From assembly GCF_001280205.1 (NCBI RefSeq), contig NZ_CP012573.1, positions 434,001-498,000 of the forward strand: DNA of 64,000 nt, read 5' to 3'. The notes under the pieces are model-generated. The model was not told where the DNA came from and did not search any database. It saw only the letters and a list, made by a program, of their open reading frames with translations. This document shows, piece by piece, positions 52,151 through 61,854 of this stretch; position 1 is the stretch's first letter, and each line of letters begins with the position of its first letter. The stretch is from Clavibacter capsici. Lineage in GTDB: Bacteria; Actinomycetota; Actinomycetes; Actinomycetales; Microbacteriaceae. The position numbers and the translations under genes were made by a program.

Positions 52151-52203
52151 ACGTCCATCATGGGGCACGGTCCGCGGCTCCGGCCGAGGCGGGCGGGCAG
52201 GGA

Positions 52204-53394
52204 TCACGCCTCCGCCTCCTCGAGCCGCCCCGCGGAGGGGTCGCGGTCGAGGCGCTCGCGGCTGAACACCTGGTCCGCCGTCGTGAGCGCGAGGCCGATG
52301 ATGCCGGCGCGGTCGCCGAGGTCGGACGTGCGGATCACGAGCTCCCGGGTCGCGAGCGGGTGCGTCCGGAGGTACACGCGCTCCCGGAGGCCGGACATGA
52401 GGACCTCGCCGCACTCGCCGAGCTGACCGGAGATGACGATCATGCGCGGGTTCAGGATGTTGACGAGGTCGGCCACGGCCTCGCCGAGGATCCGGCCCGC
52501 CTGCCGGACGGCCTGCGTCGCGCGCATGTCGCCGCGGAGGACGCCCGCGGCCACGTCGGCCACGTGGCGGATCGACGGGTCGGCCTCGGACAGGTCCCGC
52601 ACGAGCGCCCAGCCGCCCGCGTACGCCTCGACGCAGCCGGAGTTGCCGCAGCGGCAGGGGAGCGGGGACGTGTCGACGCCGTCCGCGACCGCGCGCGTGT
52701 GCCCGACGTCGCCCGCCGCGCCGACCGCGCCGCGGATCGTCTGCCCGTTGAAGACGAGGCCGGAGCCGATGCCCGTGCCGAGCTTGAGGCTGATGAGGTC
52801 GTCCGCGCCGTGGTGGTGCGCCTCGGCCCGGGCCCGCGCGTTCGCGTCGTTCTCGATGACCACGGGCGCGTCCGGGAAGGGCCCCTGGAGGAAGCCGGCG
52901 ATGTCGAAGCCGTCCCAGCCGGTCATGATCGGCGGGTTGCGCACGCGACCGGCGGCGAACTCGACCGGCCCGGGCACGCCGATCCCGATCCCGACCACGC
53001 GGCCCTCCGACATGAGGCGCTGGAAGGCCGCGACGACGAGGGAGAGCACGGCCTCCGGGCCGTCCCAGACGTCGACCTCGATCGTCTCGCGGCGCAGCGG
53101 GGTGCCGCGCAGGTCGCATGCGGCGGCGATGAGGCCGCTCGCCCCGATGTCGGCGGTGAGGAGGACGGGGCCGTCGAGGTTGACGGCGAAGACGGTGGAG
53201 GGGCGGCCGCCCGTGGACGCGCCGCCGGACGTGGGCACCAGCAGCCCGCGCTCGACGAGCGTCGCCAGGCGCTGGTTCACCGTCGACCTGCTGAGGCCCG
53301 TGCGCTCCATAACCGCGGTGCGCGACAGCTCGCCGTGCTCGCGGAAGAGGGCGAGGACGTCGGCCAGGTGCGCCGCCTGCTCGGTCTGCTTCAT
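52204..53394 (-). CDS. ROK family transcriptional repressor
   Basis: 396 residues. An N-terminal winged helix (about 10-65) has LSRTAVMERTGLSRSTVNQR as its helix-turn-helix; the ROK sugar-kinase-like domain follows with LLTADIGASG, GIGVPGPV, ENDANARARAEAHHHG and GTGIGSGLV, and the zinc loop CRCGNSGCVEAYAG. It is divergent from the ketose ABC operon, with a perfect 10-bp inverted repeat in the 157-bp gap between start codons. The likely role is sugar-responsive repression of that operon and perhaps of itself. Confidence 0.92.
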   Translation of the reverse strand: MKQTEQAAHLADVLALFREHGELSRTAVMERTGLSRSTVNQRLATLVERGLLVPTSGGASTGGRPSTVFAVNLDGPVLLTADIGASGLIAAACDLRGTPLRRETIEVDVWDGPEAVLSLVVAAFQRLMSEGRVVGIGIGVPGPVEFAAGRVRNPPIMTGWDGFDIAGFLQGPFPDAPVVIENDANARARAEAHHHGADDLISLKLGTGIGSGLVFNGQTIRGAVGAAGDVGHTRAVADGVDTSPLPCRCGNSGCVEAYAGGWALVRDLSEADPSIRHVADVAAGVLRGDMRATQAVRQAGRILGEAVADLVNILNPRMIVISGQLGECGEVLMSGLRERVYLRTHPLATRELVIRTSDLGDRAGIIGLALTTADQVFSRERLDRDPSAGRLEEAEA

Positions 53395-53466
53395 CGGATC
53401 CCCCGCTCATCGCCCCGCTCGTCTCACCGATCGTAGCCTTTCCGATGTCCACGTCACGAGAACGAT

Positions 53467-53497
53467 GCACTTTCGTGTTGCGTCGATACGAAAGTGC
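53467..53497. promoter_or_regulatory. Operator of the ketose operon (perfect 10-bp inverted repeat)
   Basis: GCACTTTCGT (53467-53476) and ACGAAAGTGC (53488-53497), arms identical in inverse, 11 nt apart, so the arm centres are 21 bp (two helical turns) apart. The right arm lies between the -35 and -10 boxes of the transporter operon. This is the expected target of the divergent ROK repressor. Confidence 0.78.
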
Positions 53498-53506
53498 CGC
53501 TAGTTT
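53479..53506 (+). promoter_or_regulatory. Promoter of the ketose ABC operon
   Basis: TTGCGT (53479-53484), 16 bp, TAGTTT (53501-53506). The operator overlaps both boxes. The leader to 53552 is about 40 nt and carries GAGG. Confidence 0.6.
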
Positions 53507-53551
53507 GCATCTACCGGCACGCAGTGGTGCCCTATATCTCCGAGGATGAAG

Positions 53552-54595
53552 ATGACCCACACCAAGTCGGCGCGTCGGGCGCTCACGCTCCTGGTCCCGG
53601 TGACGGCCGTCGCGCTGTCCCTCGCCGCCTGCTCCGGCGGCTCGACCGGCGACGCCGGCGCCTCGGGCGGCAGCTCGAGCACCAAGGTCGCCGCCGTCAT
53701 CAAGGGGCTCGACAACCCCTTCTTCCAGGCGATGGAGGACGGGATCCAGGACACGGCCGACGCGGACGGCGTCGACGTCTCCATCCAGGCCGCCGCCGAC
53801 ATCGGCGACACCACCGGCCAGGCCGACAAGCTCACCGCCCTCGCGGGACAGGACCTCGGCTGCCTCATCGTCAACCCGATCAGCGGCACCAACCTCGTGC
53901 AGGCGCTCGCCGCGGCCTCGGGGAAGACCATCGTCAACATCGACAGCCCGCTCGACCCCGACGCCGTGTCCGCCGCGAGCCTCGACGTCGCGACGTACAT
54001 CGGCACCGACAACGAGGCCGCGGGCGGCAAGGCCGGCGACTTCCTGAAGGGGTCCCTGCCGGCGGGCGCCAAGGTCGCCGTCATCGGCGGGATCTCCGGC
54101 GACGTGACGAGCGCCGCCCGCGTCGACGGCTTCACGGCCGCGATCGGATCCGACCTCGACGTCGTGCAGGAGGCCGCGGCCGACTGGAAGCGCGAGGTCG
54201 CGCTCACCAAGGCGACCGACATCATCGCGGCGGAGCCCGACGTCGCCGCCTTCTTCGCGGCGAACGACGACATGGGCCTCGGCATCGTCAAGGCGGTGGA
54301 GAACGCCGGGCGCACCGGCCAGATCCAGGTCGTGAGCGTCGACGGCAACAAGGACGCCCTCGAGAGCGTCGAGGCCGGCGGGCTCACCGCGACGGTCGCC
54401 CAGTACCCGTTCGCCATCGGCCAGCTCGGCCTCCAGGCCTGCGAGGTCGCGACCTCCGGCGGCACCCTGCCCGCCGACGTCGAGTCGCCCACCGCGCTCG
54501 TGACGACGGACAAGGCCGCGGACGCCATCGCCGCGTTCCCGCAGCCGTTCGAGGAGTTCGACAACCCCCTCACGGAGCTCCTCCCCGCGAGGTGA
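53552..54595 (+). CDS. Sugar ABC transporter substrate-binding lipoprotein (FrcB/RbsB-like)
   Basis: 347 residues from the second ATG at 53552, which is 6 nt after GAGG; the first ATG at 53546 is too close to it. The lipobox LAAC gives lipidated C27. The mature part is a pentose/hexose-binding protein of peripl_BP_4 type: VAAVIKGLDNPFFQAMEDGI, DLGCLIVNPISGTN, YIGTDNEAAGGKAGDFLK and VVSVDGNKDALESVEAG. It captures a ketose or other monosaccharide outside the membrane and delivers it to the permease and ATPase encoded downstream. Confidence 0.93.
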   Translation: MTHTKSARRALTLLVPVTAVALSLAACSGGSTGDAGASGGSSSTKVAAVIKGLDNPFFQAMEDGIQDTADADGVDVSIQAAADIGDTTGQADKLTALAGQDLGCLIVNPISGTNLVQALAAASGKTIVNIDSPLDPDAVSAASLDVATYIGTDNEAAGGKAGDFLKGSLPAGAKVAVIGGISGDVTSAARVDGFTAAIGSDLDVVQEAAADWKREVALTKATDIIAAEPDVAAFFAANDDMGLGIVKAVENAGRTGQIQVVSVDGNKDALESVEAGGLTATVAQYPFAIGQLGLQACEVATSGGTLPADVESPTALVTTDKAADAIAAFPQPFEEFDNPLTELLPAR

Positions 54596-54716
54596 CCCGG
54601 TGCGGCGCTCCACGGGAGCGCCGCACCCTCCCTCCCGCCACCCGCCCGCTCCGGCGCGGCGGCCCCTTCCGGCGCGCCGCGCCGCGCCCGCACCGCCGAG
54701 CCCCACGGAGATCCGC

Positions 54717-55706
54717 ATGACCATCGCCCCCACCCGCGCCCCGCGCAGCGACGCCGCCCCCGCGGCCCGGCTCCCGCAGCTGCGCCAGCTCTCCTTCTGG
54801 GCGGAGAACGCCGCCCCCATCGGCCTCGTCGCCCTCGTGATCGTGTTCTCGATCCTCACGCCGACGTTCCTCAGCCTCGGCAACGTCAAGGCGATGCTCG
54901 TCGCCGCGGCGATCCTCGTGATCCTGTCCGTCGGGCAGTCGTTCGTCATCACGACGGGCGGCATCGACCTCTCGATCTCCGCGACCATGACGGTCGGCGC
55001 CGTGGGCTTCGGCATCGGCTGGGGCGCGGGCTGGGGCTTCTGGCCCTCCGCGCTCGCCGCCCTCGCCTTCGCGGGTGCCATCGGCGTGATCAACGGCCTG
55101 CTCATCGCGAAGGGGAAGGTCACCGACTTCATCGCGACCCTCGGCACGCTCTCGGTCGCGACGGGCCTCGCCCTCATCGCCTCCGACGGCAAGCCGATCA
55201 CCGTGGGGAGCCCGGAGCTGCTGCGCCTCACGACCGGGTCGATCGGGATCGTCGGCTACCCGATCATCCTCGCGGCCGTCATCGGCGTCATCGCCTGGAT
55301 CGTCATGTTCCGCACGCGCTTCGGCCTGCACGTGCAGGCGGTCGGCGGCGACGAGGAGGCGGCCGTCGCGAACGGCATCGCGGCGGGACGCGTGCGCATC
55401 GCCGTCTACGTCATCGCGGCGGGGCTCGCCGGCATCGCGGCGCTGCTGCTCGTGGCGCGCGTCGGCGCCGCGGAGCCCGCCATCAACACGCAGTACCTGC
55501 TCAACTCCATCGCGGCGGTCGTGCTCGGCGGGGTCAGCCTCACGGGCGGCAAGGCCAAGATCGTCGGCCCGATCATCGGCGCCTTCCTGCTCACCGCCCT
55601 CACGAACGGCCTGACGCTGCTCGGCGTCTCGCAGTTCTACCAGCCGCTCGCGGTCGGCCTGGTGGTCGTCCTCGCCGCCCTCATCACGCGCTACCAGAAG
55701 AAGTGA
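54717..55706 (+). CDS. Sugar ABC transporter permease (FrcC/RbsC-like)
   Basis: 329 residues, about nine membrane segments. Family signatures: GQSFVITTGGIDLSISATM, the EAA-like loop GLHVQAVGGDEEAAVANGI, and VLGGVSLTGGKAKIVGPIIG. It works as a homodimer with the ATPase encoded next. GGAG precedes the ATG. A 121-bp gap after the binding-protein gene is rich in G and C and could hold a weak processing or attenuation hairpin, which is common behind genes for binding proteins. It overlaps the ATPase gene by 4 bp if that starts at GTG 55703. Confidence 0.93.
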   Translation: MTIAPTRAPRSDAAPAARLPQLRQLSFWAENAAPIGLVALVIVFSILTPTFLSLGNVKAMLVAAAILVILSVGQSFVITTGGIDLSISATMTVGAVGFGIGWGAGWGFWPSALAALAFAGAIGVINGLLIAKGKVTDFIATLGTLSVATGLALIASDGKPITVGSPELLRLTTGSIGIVGYPIILAAVIGVIAWIVMFRTRFGLHVQAVGGDEEAAVANGIAAGRVRIAVYVIAAGLAGIAALLLVARVGAAEPAINTQYLLNSIAAVVLGGVSLTGGKAKIVGPIIGAFLLTALTNGLTLLGVSQFYQPLAVGLVVVLAALITRYQKK

Positions 55707-56464
55707 GCCCCTCCATGACCGACGACATCCTCCTCGAGGCCCGCGACATCACGAAGTCCTTCGGCGGCGTCCACGCGCTCAAGGGCGCGACCATGCGGAT
55801 GCGCCGCGGCGAGATCACCGCCCTCATCGGCGACAACGGCGCCGGCAAGTCCACGCTCGTGCGCTGCCTCTCGGGCGTCCACCCGCCGGACTCCGGCACC
55901 ATCACGCTCGAGGGCGAGGCCGTGTCCTTCGGCACGCCGCTGCAGGCCCGCGACGGCGGCATCGAGACGGTCCACCAGACCCTCGCCCTCGTCGAGGACC
56001 TCACCGTCTGGCAGAACTTCTTCCTCGGCCGCGAGCTCGTGAAGGGGATCCCGGGGATCCGCTTCCTCGACCGGGCGAAGATGCGCAAGACGGCCCAGGA
56101 CCTCCTCGGCGACCTGGCGGTGAACGTGCCGCCCGTCACGAGCCGTGTGCGGCGCCTGTCCGGCGGCCAGCGCCAGGCGGTCGCCATCGCGCGCGCCGCG
56201 GGGTGGGGGAGCCGCATCGTGATCATGGACGAGCCGACCGCGGCGCTCGGCGTGCAGGAGACCGCGCGCGTCGAGAGGATCATCCTCAAGCTCCGCGACT
56301 CCGGCGTGGCCGTGCTCCTCATCAGCCACAACTTCGACCAGGTGATGCGCCTCAGCGACCAGGTCTGGGTGATGCGGGCGGGTCTCGCGGTCGCCGAGCG
56401 CCGCACGACCGAGACGTCGGGCCCCGAGCTCGTCGAGCTCATCACCGGCGCGAAGGCCGCGTGA
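55703..56464 (+). CDS. Sugar ABC transporter ATP-binding protein, single domain (FrcA-like)
   Basis: 253 residues from the GTG overlapping the permease stop; an ATG at 55715 is the alternative. Walker A GDNGAGKST is at 43-51, signature LSGGQRQAV, Walker B VIMDEPTAALG, and the switch histidine in LLISHNFDQ. Ribose-type importers normally have a fused double ATPase of about 500 residues; a single-domain ATPase is the pattern of the Sinorhizobium fructose system FrcBCA. This supports a fructose-like ketose as substrate. Confidence 0.93.
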   Translation: MSPSMTDDILLEARDITKSFGGVHALKGATMRMRRGEITALIGDNGAGKSTLVRCLSGVHPPDSGTITLEGEAVSFGTPLQARDGGIETVHQTLALVEDLTVWQNFFLGRELVKGIPGIRFLDRAKMRKTAQDLLGDLAVNVPPVTSRVRRLSGGQRQAVAIARAAGWGSRIVIMDEPTAALGVQETARVERIILKLRDSGVAVLLISHNFDQVMRLSDQVWVMRAGLAVAERRTTETSGPELVELITGAKAA

Positions 56465-57405
56465 TGCGCGCGCCGCTCCGGATGCACCGCACGTCGCCCG
56501 CGCGGACGTCGCCGATCGGGGTCCACGCTGGCCTCCTCACGCCCGACTGGACCCCCGGGTCCGCCCGGCGCGCGATCGCGACGGCCGCCGGCATCGGGTA
56601 CGACCTCGTCGAGGTCCCCGCGCCCGGCCGGGACGACGGGTCGGCCTCGGCGGCCGAGACGTCGGCGCTGCTCGACGAGCACCGCATCGACGCGGTCGTC
56701 TCCCTCGCGCTCGACGCGGCCTCCGACATCCACACCGCGGATCCGGCCGCCTCCGCGCGCGGGGAGGCCCGGCTCGCGGACGCCGTGCGGTTCGCGGCCG
56801 GCATCGGGGCGGGGTACGTGGGCGGCGTCACGCACTCGGCGATGCGCAAGAACCCGCATGGCGGGGGACCCGCCGAGCGGGCGAACGTCGTCCGGGTGCT
56901 CCGCGACGTCGCGGCGCGCGCGGCAGCCGACGGGATCGTCGTCGGGCTGGAGTACGTGAACCGCTACGAGAGCAACCTCCTCAACACCGCGGCGCAGACC
57001 GTCGCGCTGATCGAGGAGGTGGGCGCGGCGAACCTCGTCGTGCACATCGACGCCTTCCACGCGCACATGGAGGAGGTGGACCTCGCGAGCGCCGTGCGCG
57101 ACGCCGGCGACCACCTCGCCTACGTCCACGCCTCGGAGAACCACCGCGGCGAGCTCGGCACCGGCAGCACCGACTGGGACGGCCTCCTCGGCGCCCTCCG
57201 CGCGGCGTCCTTCGCCGGGCCGCTGACCGTCGAGACGTTCTCGCCTGCCGTGCAGTCCGCGGCCGTGGCCGACGACATCGGGCTGTGGCGCGAGCTCTGG
57301 TCGGATCCCGTCGCCGTGGCGACCGCGGGACACCGCTTCCTCGCGGACCGGCTCGACGTCGTCCCGACCGAGGCCGACGCGGCGCCCGCCGCGACCCGCG
57401 CCTGA
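56464..57405 (+). CDS. Ketose 3-epimerase-like sugar isomerase (paralogue 1)
   Basis: 313 residues, ATG overlapping the ATPase stop. It is an AP-endonuclease-family-2 TIM barrel. The metal tetrad of D-psicose/D-tagatose 3-epimerases is intact: E163 (GLEYVNRYES), D196 (HIDAFHAHMEE), H222 (YVHASENHRG) and E257 (TVETFSP), with the spacing 33-26-35 identical to the second paralogue. It has 20 more N-terminal residues than paralogue 2. It probably interconverts C3 epimers of ketohexoses (for example D-allulose and D-fructose) with Mn2+ or Co2+. Confidence 0.85.
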   Translation: MRAPLRMHRTSPARTSPIGVHAGLLTPDWTPGSARRAIATAAGIGYDLVEVPAPGRDDGSASAAETSALLDEHRIDAVVSLALDAASDIHTADPAASARGEARLADAVRFAAGIGAGYVGGVTHSAMRKNPHGGGPAERANVVRVLRDVAARAAADGIVVGLEYVNRYESNLLNTAAQTVALIEEVGAANLVVHIDAFHAHMEEVDLASAVRDAGDHLAYVHASENHRGELGTGSTDWDGLLGALRAASFAGPLTVETFSPAVQSAAVADDIGLWRELWSDPVAVATAGHRFLADRLDVVPTEADAAPAATRA

Positions 57406-57433
57406 CCCCATCCACCCAGAAAGCAGGAGAACC

Positions 57434-58306
57434 ATGCCCACGAACGCACTCGGAGTGCACGCCCTCGTCTTCGCCGGCGGCACGACCCCGGACGAGATCA
57501 CCCGCACGGTGGAGCAGACGAAGGCGGCCGGCTTCGACCTGCTCGAGCTCTCGCTGCACGACGTGGTCAACCTCGACACCGCGCACGCGAAGGCCGCCCT
57601 CGACGCCGAGGGCCTCGACGTCGTCTGCTCGCGCGGCCTCGCGTTCTCGGCCGACGTGTCGAGCGAGGACCCGGACACCGTGGCGCGCGGCGCGGAGCTC
57701 CTCGCTGACAGCCTCGACGTGGTCGAGGCGCTCGGCGGCACGCACTTCACGGGCGCCCTCTACAGCGCGCTCGGCAAGTACGGCGCGCCCCTGTCGGCGA
57801 AGGGACGCGCCAACGTCGTCGGCGTGCTGACGGACCTCGCGGCGGACGCGGGCCGTCGCGGCATGACGCTCGGACTCGAGATCTGCAACCGCTACGAGAC
57901 CAACGTGATCAACACCGCGGCCGACGCGCTGCGCCTCGCCGACGACATCGGGGCGGACAACGTGCTCATCCACCTGGACACTTATCACATGAACATCGAG
58001 GAGGACGACCTCGCCCGGCCCGTGCGGCTCGTCGGCGACCGGCTCGGCTACGTCCACGTGGGCGAGAACCACCGGGGCTACCTCGGCAGCGGGCACCTCG
58101 ACTTCACGAGCTTCTTCCACGCCCTGGCGGAGATCGACTACCGCGGCGCCATCACGTTCGAGTCGTTCTCGTCGGCCGTCGTCTCGCCGACCCTGTCGAA
58201 CGACCTCGCCATCTGGCGGAACCTCTGGGACGACGGCCCCGCGCTCGCCCGCCACGCGGGCGACTTCCTCCGCGCCGGGCTGGAGGGCAGCCGTGCCCGC
58301 GTCTGA
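57434..58306 (+). CDS. D-psicose/allulose 3-epimerase-like protein (paralogue 2)
   Basis: 290 residues, AGGAGA before the ATG. The active-site residues E149, D182, H208 and E243 match, offset by one, the E150, D183, H209 and E244 metal ligands known for Agrobacterium D-psicose 3-epimerase. The sequences around them also agree: GLEICNRYETNVINTA and HLDTYHMNIEE. It lies 28 bp after paralogue 1. Having two non-identical epimerases suggests either two substrates or sequential epimerisation. It overlaps the kinase gene by 14 bp. Confidence 0.88.
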   Translation: MPTNALGVHALVFAGGTTPDEITRTVEQTKAAGFDLLELSLHDVVNLDTAHAKAALDAEGLDVVCSRGLAFSADVSSEDPDTVARGAELLADSLDVVEALGGTHFTGALYSALGKYGAPLSAKGRANVVGVLTDLAADAGRRGMTLGLEICNRYETNVINTAADALRLADDIGADNVLIHLDTYHMNIEEDDLARPVRLVGDRLGYVHVGENHRGYLGSGHLDFTSFFHALAEIDYRGAITFESFSSAVVSPTLSNDLAIWRNLWDDGPALARHAGDFLRAGLEGSRARV

Positions 58307-58961
58307 CCTCGACGCCCTCGCCCGCCGCGCCCTCGGGCTCGTGCGCGACGGGCGCCGCGCGATCCTCGCCATCGCGGGCAGCCCGGGCGCCGGCAAGACG
58401 ACGCTCGCGCGGGCGCTCGTGGCGCGGGTCGACGCGCTGGCGGGCGACGGCACCGCGGCGTACGTGCCCATGGACGGCTTCCACCTCGCGAACGCGACGC
58501 TCGACCGGCTCGGCCGGCACGACCGCAAGGGCGCGATCGACACCTTCGACGGGTGGGGCGTGCTCGCGCTCGTGCGGCGGATCCGCGCGGAGACGGACCA
58601 CACGGTGTACGCGCCGTCGTTCGACCGGGCGGTCGACGAGGGGGTGGCCGGCGCGATCGCGGTGGATCCCGGCGCCCGGCTCGTCGTGGTCGAGGGCAAC
58701 TACCTGCTCGTCGACGAGGATCCGTGGGCGCAGCTCGCCGCGGAGTGCGACGAGGCGTGGTTCTGCGAGACGCCCGCCGACGCGCGGTTCTCGCGCCTGG
58801 TCGACCGGCACACCGCGGGCGGGCGCGATCCGGACGCCGCGGCGGCGTGGGCACGTGAGGTCGACGGCGCCAACGCGGTCCTCATCGAGGGCACGCGCGG
58901 CCGCGCCGACCTCGTGGTGGACGGCACGGCCGCCGCGGTCCGCGACGCCGTGGGCGGCTGA
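58293..58961 (+). CDS. P-loop sugar kinase, FrcK/PanK-like
   Basis: 222 residues, GTG start inside the end of epimerase 2. Walker A GSPGAGKT is at 29-36; MDGFHLANATLDRLGRHDRK and VEGNYLLVDEDPWAQL are the substrate segments of the uridine kinase/PanK-like family that includes FrcK of the Sinorhizobium fructose operon frcBCAK. It probably phosphorylates the imported or epimerised ketose before glycolysis. It is the last gene of the ABC-epimerase unit. The exact sugar is an inference. Confidence 0.85.
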   Translation: MPASDLDALARRALGLVRDGRRAILAIAGSPGAGKTTLARALVARVDALAGDGTAAYVPMDGFHLANATLDRLGRHDRKGAIDTFDGWGVLALVRRIRAETDHTVYAPSFDRAVDEGVAGAIAVDPGARLVVVEGNYLLVDEDPWAQLAAECDEAWFCETPADARFSRLVDRHTAGGRDPDAAAAWAREVDGANAVLIEGTRGRADLVVDGTAAAVRDAVGG

Positions 58962-58989
58962 CGCGGATCCGGCGGTCGGTGGCCTTCCG

Positions 58990-58995
58990 TAGCCT
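58990..58995 (+). promoter_or_regulatory. Leaderless -10 box of the AlkA-like gene
   Basis: TAGCCT, 6 nt, then the ATG at 59002. Confidence 0.62.
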
Positions 58996-59001
58996 GAGGG
59001 G

Positions 59002-60900: not shown

Positions 60901-61854
60901 GTGCCCGAAGACGTGTCGTACATCCCCCGCCTCCCCACCGGACAGCAGCACGAGCTCGTCGCGGAGGTGGACGGCCGCACCCAGCGCATGGTGATCGCGG
61001 AGGTCGGCGCCGCGCTCCGCGTGCTCCAGGTGGACGCCACCGACCTCGTCCAGTCCTATCCCGACCGGGCGCGGCCCCCGTTCTGCAGCGGCATCGTGCT
61101 CGCGCCCTGGCCCAACCGGATCCGCGACGGCATCTGGCAGCAGGGCGACGTGGTGCACCAGCTCGACATCACCGAGGTCGACCGGGAGAACGCGATCCAC
61201 GGGCTCCTCGAGAACGCGCCGTACCGCCTCGTCGAGCGCGACGAGGTCTCCGTGACGCTCGCCGCCGACGTCCACCCGCAGCGCGGCTACCCGTTCGCCC
61301 TCGAGACGACCGTGCGGTACGAGCTCACGGGATCCGGCGTCCGCGTGACGCACGGGATCCGCAACGTCGGCGACGCGGACGCGCCCGTCGCCGTCGGCAC
61401 GCACCCCTTCCTCCGCGTGGGCGACGTGCCCACCGAGGACCTCGAGGTCGTCATCGACGCGCCCACCCACATCGAGGTGGATCCCGTGCGCCTCAACCCC
61501 ACGGGCGCCCAGACCCCGGTCGAGGGCACCCGCTTCGACCTCCGCCAGGGCGTCCGCGTGCGCGACGCGCAGCTCGACGACGCGTGGGCCGACGCCCGCG
61601 TGGTCGACGGCGTCACGCGCCACGGCGTGCAGGCGCCCGACGGCCGCCGCACCGAGATCTGGGCGGACGGCGAGTTCACCTACTGGCAGGTCTTCGTGAC
61701 GCCGTGGTACCCGGTCGCCGACGGCCACGTGTGGGCGGTCGCGGTCGAGCCGATGACGGCGCCGGCGGACGCCTTCAACTCGGGCGACGGCCTCATCACC
61801 CTCGCGCCCGGATCCGAGTGGTCCGGCACCTGGGGCATCGACCTGCACGACTGA
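60901..61854 (+). CDS. Aldose 1-epimerase family protein (GalM-like)
   Basis: 317 residues, GTG start. Galactose-mutarotase fold: PWPNRIRDGIW for the sugar arginine, AIHGLLENAPY with the first catalytic-site histidine, GTHPFLRVGD with the second, and the base glutamate in VAVEPMTAPADAF. It interconverts alpha and beta anomers of hexoses in the cytoplasm. It is transcribed alone. It may serve the nearby sugar modules but no direct link is visible. Confidence 0.88.
   Translation: MPEDVSYIPRLPTGQQHELVAEVDGRTQRMVIAEVGAALRVLQVDATDLVQSYPDRARPPFCSGIVLAPWPNRIRDGIWQQGDVVHQLDITEVDRENAIHGLLENAPYRLVERDEVSVTLAADVHPQRGYPFALETTVRYELTGSGVRVTHGIRNVGDADAPVAVGTHPFLRVGDVPTEDLEVVIDAPTHIEVDPVRLNPTGAQTPVEGTRFDLRQGVRVRDAQLDDAWADARVVDGVTRHGVQAPDGRRTEIWADGEFTYWQVFVTPWYPVADGHVWAVAVEPMTAPADAFNSGDGLITLAPGSEWSGTWGIDLHD

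What the first reader, a model, noticed from the sequence alone, without database searches (positions are those of the whole stretch)
52204..58961. Candidate rare-ketose (allulose/tagatose/fructose) utilisation system with two epimerases and its own repressor
One divergent locus encodes a ROK repressor, a FrcBCA-type ABC importer with a single-domain ATPase, two non-identical ketose 3-epimerases and a FrcK-like kinase, and it abuts pfkA. Seen directly: both epimerases keep the full metal tetrad with identical spacing (E163/D196/H222/E257 and E149/D182/H208/E243). Known: the second set matches Agrobacterium D-psicose 3-epimerase E150/D183/H209/E244 by one offset. Inferred: import of a rare ketose, C3 epimerisation to a glycolytic sugar and phosphorylation, with the paralogues serving different substrates. 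I do not recall this exact gene set as a described operon.
Basis: partly seen in the sequence, partly recalled or inferred. Interest (0 to 1): 0.72.

Follow-up and report, generated by a model that had tools for sequence, protein, structure and literature searches.

The report
Two-epimerase sugar uptake operon
A plant-associated bacterium carries a self-regulated set of genes that probably imports a rare sugar and rearranges it for ordinary sugar breakdown; many related bacteria keep the same set, with two different copies of the rearranging enzyme side by side, but the sugar itself is not proven.

Summary
The window is from a Clavibacter genome. ROK | SBP-permease-ATPase-EPI1-EPI2-kinase recurs in the same order in 28 of 28 EPI1-bearing loci examined (14 Microbacteriaceae genera, Cellulomonas, two genomes of other families). 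A conserved ~29-bp palindrome lies in 30 of 32 ROK gaps and is the only perfect match to its pattern in each of nine cassette genomes: a dedicated local regulator. EPI2 is the conserved epimerase. EPI1 is a separate, faster-evolving clade that keeps the catalytic residues; some relatives lack it. The kinase is not specific to the locus: 18 of 18 Clavibacter genomes have it, and in 14 it sits alone beside pfkA with the other six genes missing there as one ~6.1-kb block. This favours 'import, epimerise, hand over to a resident kinase' and makes the pfkA adjacency incidental. The substrate is unproven: neither epimerase reaches the curated D-psicose 3-epimerase cut-off, and EPI2's distal pocket (His42, Arg67) differs from two characterised enzymes. 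An allulose-type ketohexose is most likely, a ketopentose the main rival. A conserved variant of a known kind of sugar operon; ten literature searches found no description.

The parts
52204..53394 (-). ROK-family repressor with N-terminal HTH; dedicated regulator of the cassette
   Evidence: PF00480 162 bits, HTH_IclR; divergent from SBP in 28 of 28 loci
53467..53497 (.). Putative ROK operator GCACTTTCGT-N11-ACGAAAGTGC
   Evidence: perfect 10-bp inverted repeat; motif in 30 of 32 gaps; one zero-mismatch site in each of 9 cassette genomes
53546..54595 (+). Sugar-binding lipoprotein (SBP), allose/ribose-binding type
   Evidence: best PDB matches E. coli D-allose-binding protein 8wl5/1gub; aligned pocket residues invariant in 31 of 31
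54717..55706 (+). CUT2-type permease
   Evidence: PF02653 119 bits
55715..56464 (+). Single-domain sugar ABC ATPase
   Evidence: PF00005; matches only the first ~240 positions of RbsA/AlsA-type profiles
56464..57405 (+). EPI1: divergent, fast-evolving ketose 3-epimerase-family paralogue, catalytic residues intact
   Evidence: AlphaFold mean pLDDT 89.7 and Foldseek top hits allulose/L-ribulose 3-epimerases
57434..58306 (+). EPI2: conserved ketose 3-epimerase-family enzyme with distal-pocket His42/Arg67
58293..58961 (+). FrcK/YggC-type P-loop kinase; core Clavibacter gene, last gene of the operon here
   Evidence: NF006743 267.4 bits over cut-off 227; in 18 of 18 Clavibacter genomes (4, 14)
52177..58304 (.). 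Segment missing as one block at this spot in 14 of 18 Clavibacter genomes (ROK to EPI2)
   Evidence: blastn arms end at 52173-52176 and resume at 58305-58307 in 14 of 14

Best explanation
A self-regulated uptake and C3-epimerisation module for a rare ketose, most likely a D-allulose-type ketohexose. Without the sugar, the ROK protein sits on one palindrome between the divergent genes and represses them. When the sugar or a metabolite binds it, the lipoprotein, permease and single-domain ATPase are made and import the sugar unphosphorylated. EPI2, the core epimerase, inverts C3 by the two-glutamate/metal mechanism to give a common ketose. The paralogue EPI1 uses the same chemistry on a second, related substrate or form. 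The product is phosphorylated by the FrcK/YggC-type kinase, which the cell keeps even without the module, and enters glycolysis. Shown by computation: gene set, operator, conservation, intact catalytic residues, divergence of EPI1, independence of the kinase. Inferred: the sugar, the direction of reaction, the kinase's substrate, repression and the inducer.
For: Fixed gene order in 28 of 28 EPI1-bearing loci. Operator in 30 of 32 gaps and one perfect site in each of 9 cassette genomes. Both epimerases match ketose 3-epimerases best (fold of EPI1); metal tetrad plus His199/185 and Arg228/214 invariant in 28 of 28 EPI1 and 36 of 36 EPI2. SBP closest to the D-allose-binding protein, with ten aligned pocket positions invariant in 31 of 31. 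Kinase kept beside pfkA in 14 of 14 module-free Clavibacter genomes, which fits a downstream kinase on a generally available sugar; sugar- or polyol-type genes lie near it in 5 of 16 stand-alone neighbourhoods. The genome has a fructose PTS and 1-phosphofructokinase, so this importer is not needed for fructose itself.
Against: No epimerase or SBP passes a substrate-specific cut-off: EPI1 120.7 and EPI2 164.4 bits against 300 for D-psicose 3-epimerase; SBP 192.8 against 335 for the D-allose binder. EPI2's pocket departs from the Methylomonas enzyme (Leu45 to His in 33 of 36, Leu70 to Arg in 36 of 36, Val111 to Ala in 36 of 36). FrcK could not replace fructokinase in S. meliloti. The characterised neighbours prefer L-ribulose. 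Stand-alone kinases sit in mixed contexts; most neighbours were not scanned. EPI2 occurs without kinase or importer in L102, L103 and L105.
Confidence: 0.5

Rival explanations
1. The substrate is a ketopentose or pentose (L-ribulose, D-ribulose, xylulose, or ribose after isomerisation), and the kinase makes a pentulose phosphate.
For: AgDAE, MetLRE and MlLRE all work fastest on L-ribulose (PMC8167858, table seen as a passage); SBP has Phe60 as the ribose binder has Phe16, where ALBP has Trp16; the kinase matches the PRK/uridine kinase family.
Against: SBP keeps Lys53, aligned to ALBP Lys9, in 31 of 31 and scores better with allose than ribose binders. No further pentose gene lies within the cassette.
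Confidence: 0.25
2. Kinase first: the imported ketose is phosphorylated and EPI2 acts on a ketose phosphate (e.g. allulose-6-phosphate to fructose-6-phosphate), as in AlsK/AlsE but with other protein families.
For: Arg67 (36 of 36) and His42 (33 of 36) put polar groups at the distal end of the sugar, where the two solved enzymes compared have Leu and Leu/Met; EPI2 and kinase stay together without the importer in L100, L101 and L104.
Against: The kinase persists without EPI2 in 14 of 18 Clavibacter genomes, and relatives of it occur in 167 of 339 family genomes (E <= 1e-40, down to about 45% identity). EPI2 scores far lower with the L-ribulose-5-phosphate 3-epimerase models (32 bits or less) than with D-psicose 3-epimerase.
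Confidence: 0.12
3. EPI1 is not a C3 epimerase but an aldose-ketose isomerase or other-position epimerase, giving a linear two-step route such as D-allose to D-allulose to D-fructose.
For: Changes found in EPI1 but not in EPI2, AgDAE or MetLRE, beside the catalytic residues: Gly23 (27 of 28), Val79 (27 of 28), Ala82 (28 of 28), Tyr164 (27 of 28), Ala200 (25 of 28), Ser/Ala224 (27 of 28); allose-binder-like SBP; the superfamily includes isomerases (one search lists hydroxypyruvate isomerase as a weaker match).
Against: Best sequence and fold matches are still C3 epimerases, and all C3-epimerase catalytic residues are kept. Cassettes without EPI1 exist (L099, L112).
Confidence: 0.2
4. EPI1 is a redundant duplicate on its way out.
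For: Fastest-evolving gene of the cassette: dN/dS 0.21-0.30 against 0.00-0.12 for EPI2 in Clavibacter; absent from some cassettes.
Against: Catalytic residues invariant in 28 of 28; dN/dS well below 1 in all 6 pairs; open frames of 291-329 codons without internal stop in 28 of 28.
Confidence: 0.07

Closest known systems
Sinorhizobium meliloti frc locus (frcRS | frcB-frcCAK)
   Same: Divergent putative negative regulator, binding protein, permease, single ATPase gene and FrcK-type kinase (PMC10433430, passages)
   Different: No epimerase named in frc; kinase after two epimerases here; FrcK did not replace the fructokinase there; orthology of SBP to FrcB was not tested
Ketose 3-epimerases AgDAE (5zfs, 8yeb), MetLRE (7cj4-9), MlLRE (3vyl)
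   Same: Fold (EPI1), metal tetrad and spacing, catalytic His and Arg, Ser69 and His12 equivalents (residues compared with AgDAE and MetLRE only)
   Different: EPI2 48% and EPI1 38% identical to AgDAE; different distal pocket in EPI2; two tandem paralogues in one operon
E. coli D-allose system (als) and its binding protein ALBP
   Same: SBP is nearest ALBP among solved structures and conserves its aligned pocket residues except Trp16, which is Phe
   Different: als has a double-length ATPase (profile length 510) and works through AlsK/AlsE at the phosphate level (recalled); SBP is below the NCBIfam cut-off
Klebsiella pneumoniae psicose locus
   Same: A bacterial locus for D-allulose use with a kinase and an epimerase (PMC6020474, passages)
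   Different: Permease, ribokinase-type kinase and allulose-6-phosphate 3-epimerase are listed there, in place of the ABC importer, ketose 3-epimerases and FrcK-type kinase

Membership tests
D-psicose (D-allulose) 3-epimerase equivalog NF051856 | Score over curated cut-off 300 | tested here: not met
   EPI1 120.7, EPI2 164.4 bits
Ketose 3-epimerase (DTE/LRE) family | Metal tetrad E/D/H/E with catalytic His and Arg | tested here: met
   invariant in 28 of 28 EPI1 and 36 of 36 EPI2
Ketose 3-epimerase (DTE/LRE) family | Best sequence and fold matches are ketose 3-epimerases | tested here: met
   sequence, both; fold, EPI1 only
Ketose 3-epimerase (DTE/LRE) family | C3 epimerisation of free ketoses | not testable with these tools
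   needs an assay
5-keto-L-gluconate epimerase IolO NF041099 and hydroxypyruvate isomerase TIGR03234 | Score over curated cut-offs 300 and 353.45 | tested here: not met
   EPI2 115.1 and 67.5, EPI1 89.6 and 59.6 bits
FrcBCA-type fructose system | Divergent regulator, SBP, permease, single-domain ATPase, FrcK-type kinase | tested here: met
FrcBCA-type fructose system | SBP orthologous to FrcB and fructose transported | not tested
   no FrcB sequence was compared; transport not testable
D-allose binding protein NF007254 | Score over curated cut-off 335 | tested here: not met
   192.8 bits
ROK repressor | ROK domain plus N-terminal HTH | tested here: met
   PF00480 162.2 bits, HTH_IclR 36.5 bits
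PRK09270/FrcK-type kinase NF006743 | Score over cut-off 227, intact P-loop | tested here: met
   267.4 bits; P-loop G29, P31, G32, G34, K35 invariant in 25 aligned; the model's name is generic and gives no substrate

The most novel reading that the evidence does not exclude
The tandem pair is a conserved division of labour in which EPI1 is a new activity of the ketose 3-epimerase fold (aldose-ketose isomerase, an epimerase at another carbon, or an obligate partner of EPI2). One operon would then turn an imported rare aldose or ketose into a glycolytic ketose in two steps without phosphorylated intermediates.
Probability: 0.22. Interest if true: 0.6.

Novelty: new variant of a known kind. Interest (0 to 1): 0.42.

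Why it matters
Ketose 3-epimerases are the industrial enzymes for D-allulose, yet what they do in their hosts is mostly unclear (my reading of the literature seen). A conserved operon with a dedicated regulator, an importer and two co-inherited epimerases gives a natural context, and a clean operator, from which substrate and inducer can be read. It also offers two unexplored enzyme clades with active-site surroundings unlike AgDAE or MetLRE, and a candidate sugar sensor. The finding that the FrcK-type kinase is kept without the module helps the open question of what FrcK/YggC kinases phosphorylate.

Tried and rejected
Spacing of metal residues as evidence for allulose: rejected, it is family-wide. 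pfkA adjacency as part of the system: rejected, Clavibacter only. Kinase as an exclusive member of the rare-sugar pathway: rejected. Kinase context as a clue to its substrate: 16 stand-alone neighbourhoods fetched. A selection of neighbours was scanned, the rest not: zinc dehydrogenases of the polyol/idonate kind beside it in L192 and L195 (below every cut-off), a rhamnosidase-like protein in L197, LacI regulator and sugar-binding protein in L199, a sugar ABC operon in L201; the others showed no sugar genes to my eye. This leans towards a sugar or polyol kinase without naming the sugar. Plasmid relatives: EPI2 relatives of at most 48% identity among the 25 of 50 records listed, one rhizobial neighbourhood read; no SBP relative at E 1e-40. 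PfkB kinases of the window genome: one inositol-type, one ribokinase-like, one 1-PFK, two heptose-kinase-like, one weakly fructokinase-like far below cut-off; three further short PfkB matches were not examined.

Print searches: (ten searches of open-licence PubMed Central papers; listings seen, eight papers opened for passages only). None of the listings or passages describes this gene set; subscription papers and patents were not searched.

Full report
What is there. The window lies in a Clavibacter genome: named close relatives are C. michiganensis CFBP8019 and C. lycopersici, whose contigs match genomes that count as 'same genus'; the species was not determined. ROK is divergent from SBP-permease-ATPase-EPI1-EPI2-kinase. 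The frames are tightly packed: the EPI1 ATG overlaps the ATPase stop by one base, and the kinase GTG lies inside the end of EPI2, so one transcript is likely (inference).

Conservation. In 398 family genomes, 23 have an EPI1 relative of 49% identity or more, in 14 genera. Outside the family such relatives were seen in 2 of 396 order-level genomes (G1124, G887) and in two named Cellulomonas contigs. Of the six other hits (37-44%), the five fetched are closer to EPI2, as is the sixth, G179. In the 27 fetched EPI1 loci plus the window, all seven genes occur in the same order and directions; in L052 ROK is cut by a contig end. The sample was chosen by EPI1, so this shows linkage, not frequency. 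The locus is patchy: 4 of 18 Clavibacter genomes.

Natural variants. EPI2 at 65% identity or more is in 30 of 398 genomes; 23 carry EPI1 and 7 do not. G105 (L099) has the whole cassette minus EPI1, as does the more distant L112; L110 also lacks EPI1 and shows no kinase; L104 keeps ROK, EPI2 and kinase without an importer; L100 and L101 keep EPI2 and kinase; L102, L103 and L105 have EPI2 with no other cassette gene (distant ATPase matches aside); L106 has a shortened EPI2 beside the kinase. EPI2 is therefore the core epimerase and EPI1 an added one (inference).

The two paralogues. In a tree of 75 sequences EPI1 forms one clade (28 rows, 100/99) and EPI2 another (36 rows, 100/100); AgDAE groups with other actinobacterial enzymes and with neither (midpoint root, some long EPI1 branches). 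Over 378 pairs of loci EPI1 is always more diverged (mean identity 0.55 against 0.79; the pairs are not independent). Within Clavibacter, six pairs of four loci, dN/dS is 0.21-0.30 for EPI1, 0.00-0.12 for EPI2, 0.11-0.21 for the kinase and 0.01-0.11 for importer and ROK. EPI1 is thus under weaker but clear purifying selection. The metal tetrad, the catalytic His and Arg, Ser80/66 and His21/9 are invariant in both clades, while EPI1 has its own conserved residues close by in sequence (Gly23, Val79, Ala82, Tyr164, Ala200, Ser/Ala224). The EPI1 AlphaFold model (mean pLDDT 89.7) matches Methylomonas and A. globiformis epimerases best.

EPI2's pocket. In the Methylomonas enzyme O4 of allulose faces Leu45, Val111, Leu116 and Leu257, and O5/O6 meet Ser69 (PMC8167858, passages). 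EPI2 has His42 for Leu45 (33 of 36), Ala108 for Val111 (36 of 36) and Arg67 beside Ser66 (36 of 36), all absent from the nine other actinobacterial sequences aligned. A modelling paper on the C. bolteae enzyme places the residue I equate with Arg67 (Tyr68, in Gly67-Tyr68-Gly69) in hydrogen bond with fructose (PMC6166005, passages; the equivalence is my reading of the motif, not an alignment with that sequence). The preferred substrate of EPI2 may therefore differ from that of AgDAE.

Importer. The SBP's best PDB match is the D-allose-binding protein (E 4e-46). Lys53, Asn57, Phe59, Phe60, Asp133, Arg192, Trp214, Asn240, Asp266 and Gln286 are invariant in 31 of 31. They align with ALBP (with Phe60 for Trp16) and, Lys53 apart, resemble the E. 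coli ribose-binder pocket listed in PMC2630998 (passages; no ribose-binder sequence was aligned); that ALBP's Lys9 touches the sugar is recalled. This supports a sugar of the allose/ribose/allulose shape and does not decide among them.

Regulation. The gap holds a perfect 10-bp inverted repeat (53467-53497). The pattern CACTTTYGNNTTGCNNNNANNCRAAAGTG scores at least 16 of 21 fixed positions in 30 of 32 gaps (misses: L110 with 13, L112 with 11; of 6400 mononucleotide shuffles 0.4% reach 15; pattern built on the same set). A shortened form has one zero-mismatch site in each of the nine cassette genomes searched and none in the tenth genome; the other matches, up to two mismatches, are the same site read backwards plus one further two-mismatch site in G251; the reversed control pattern gave none. 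In the window, up to three mismatches, dinucleotide shuffles give 0.02 matches on average and only this site is found. A dedicated local regulator follows; repression and inducer are inferred.

The kinase. pfkA and the AlkA-like gene are in 18 of 18 Clavibacter genomes. In the 14 without the module the kinase alone remains between them (85-90% identity), directly beside pfkA, and no trace of the other six genes is found there at E 0.01; the window arms end at 52173-52176 and resume at 58305-58307 in all 14. Whether this is loss or gain was not tested. Relatives of the kinase (E 1e-40 or better, down to about 45% identity) are in 167 of 339 family genomes. Among 16 stand-alone neighbourhoods, sugar- or polyol-type genes lie near it in five by partial scanning, with no single recurring partner. 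In S. meliloti a frcK plasmid does not restore growth of a frk mutant and the authors leave its substrate open (PMC10433430, passages); yggC was listed as a predicted sugar/polyol kinase, test in progress (PMC3223725, passage). So the kinase is probably a general sugar kinase that receives the product, but this is the weakest step of the pathway.

Host context. The genome has a fructose PTS with a 1-phosphofructokinase about 1 kb away, so free fructose has another way in, which favours a non-fructose substrate for the importer.

Verdict. A real, conserved, self-regulated uptake and epimerisation operon, with a divided pair of epimerases as its distinctive feature. Allulose-type ketohexose 0.5, pentulose 0.25, the rest between kinase-first and a new EPI1 activity (these readings overlap in part). 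Ordinary in kind, unusual in arrangement.

Noticed in passing
L144 1798-2298; window gap 58962-59001: A 166-aa gene between kinase and AlkA-like gene was called in 9 of 14 module-free Clavibacter loci and found in the three other module-bearing ones; it is absent from the window region, an independent small loss.
   Followed up: partly
L145 1579-2541: An IS481-type transposase (PF13011 61 bits) sits between kinase and AlkA-like gene in one module-free genome, so this spot takes insertions.
   Followed up: partly
L147 1100-2275: A 391-aa AAA ATPase-type ORF (PF13191) sits between kinase and AlkA-like gene in one module-free genome.
   Followed up: partly
L106 9340-9774: A genome of the same genus as R. 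iranicus (G234) keeps only a shortened EPI2 (85% over half the protein) plus the kinase.
   Followed up: partly
L191 5972-6400: A 152-residue EPI2-like stretch of 33% identity lies directly before a stand-alone kinase, perhaps a remnant.
   Followed up: no
window 60901-61851: Aldose 1-epimerase (GalM-like) near the kinase in the four module-bearing Clavibacter loci; S. meliloti frc also has a mutarotase gene, frcS.
   Followed up: partly
G000: The window genome holds eight matches to the xylose-isomerase-like barrel family, six of them outside this locus.
   Followed up: no
L109, L113, L114, L116: AgDAE-type epimerases (52-55% to EPI2) lie beside sugar ABC transporters with paired ATPase matches, another context of this enzyme family.
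   Followed up: no
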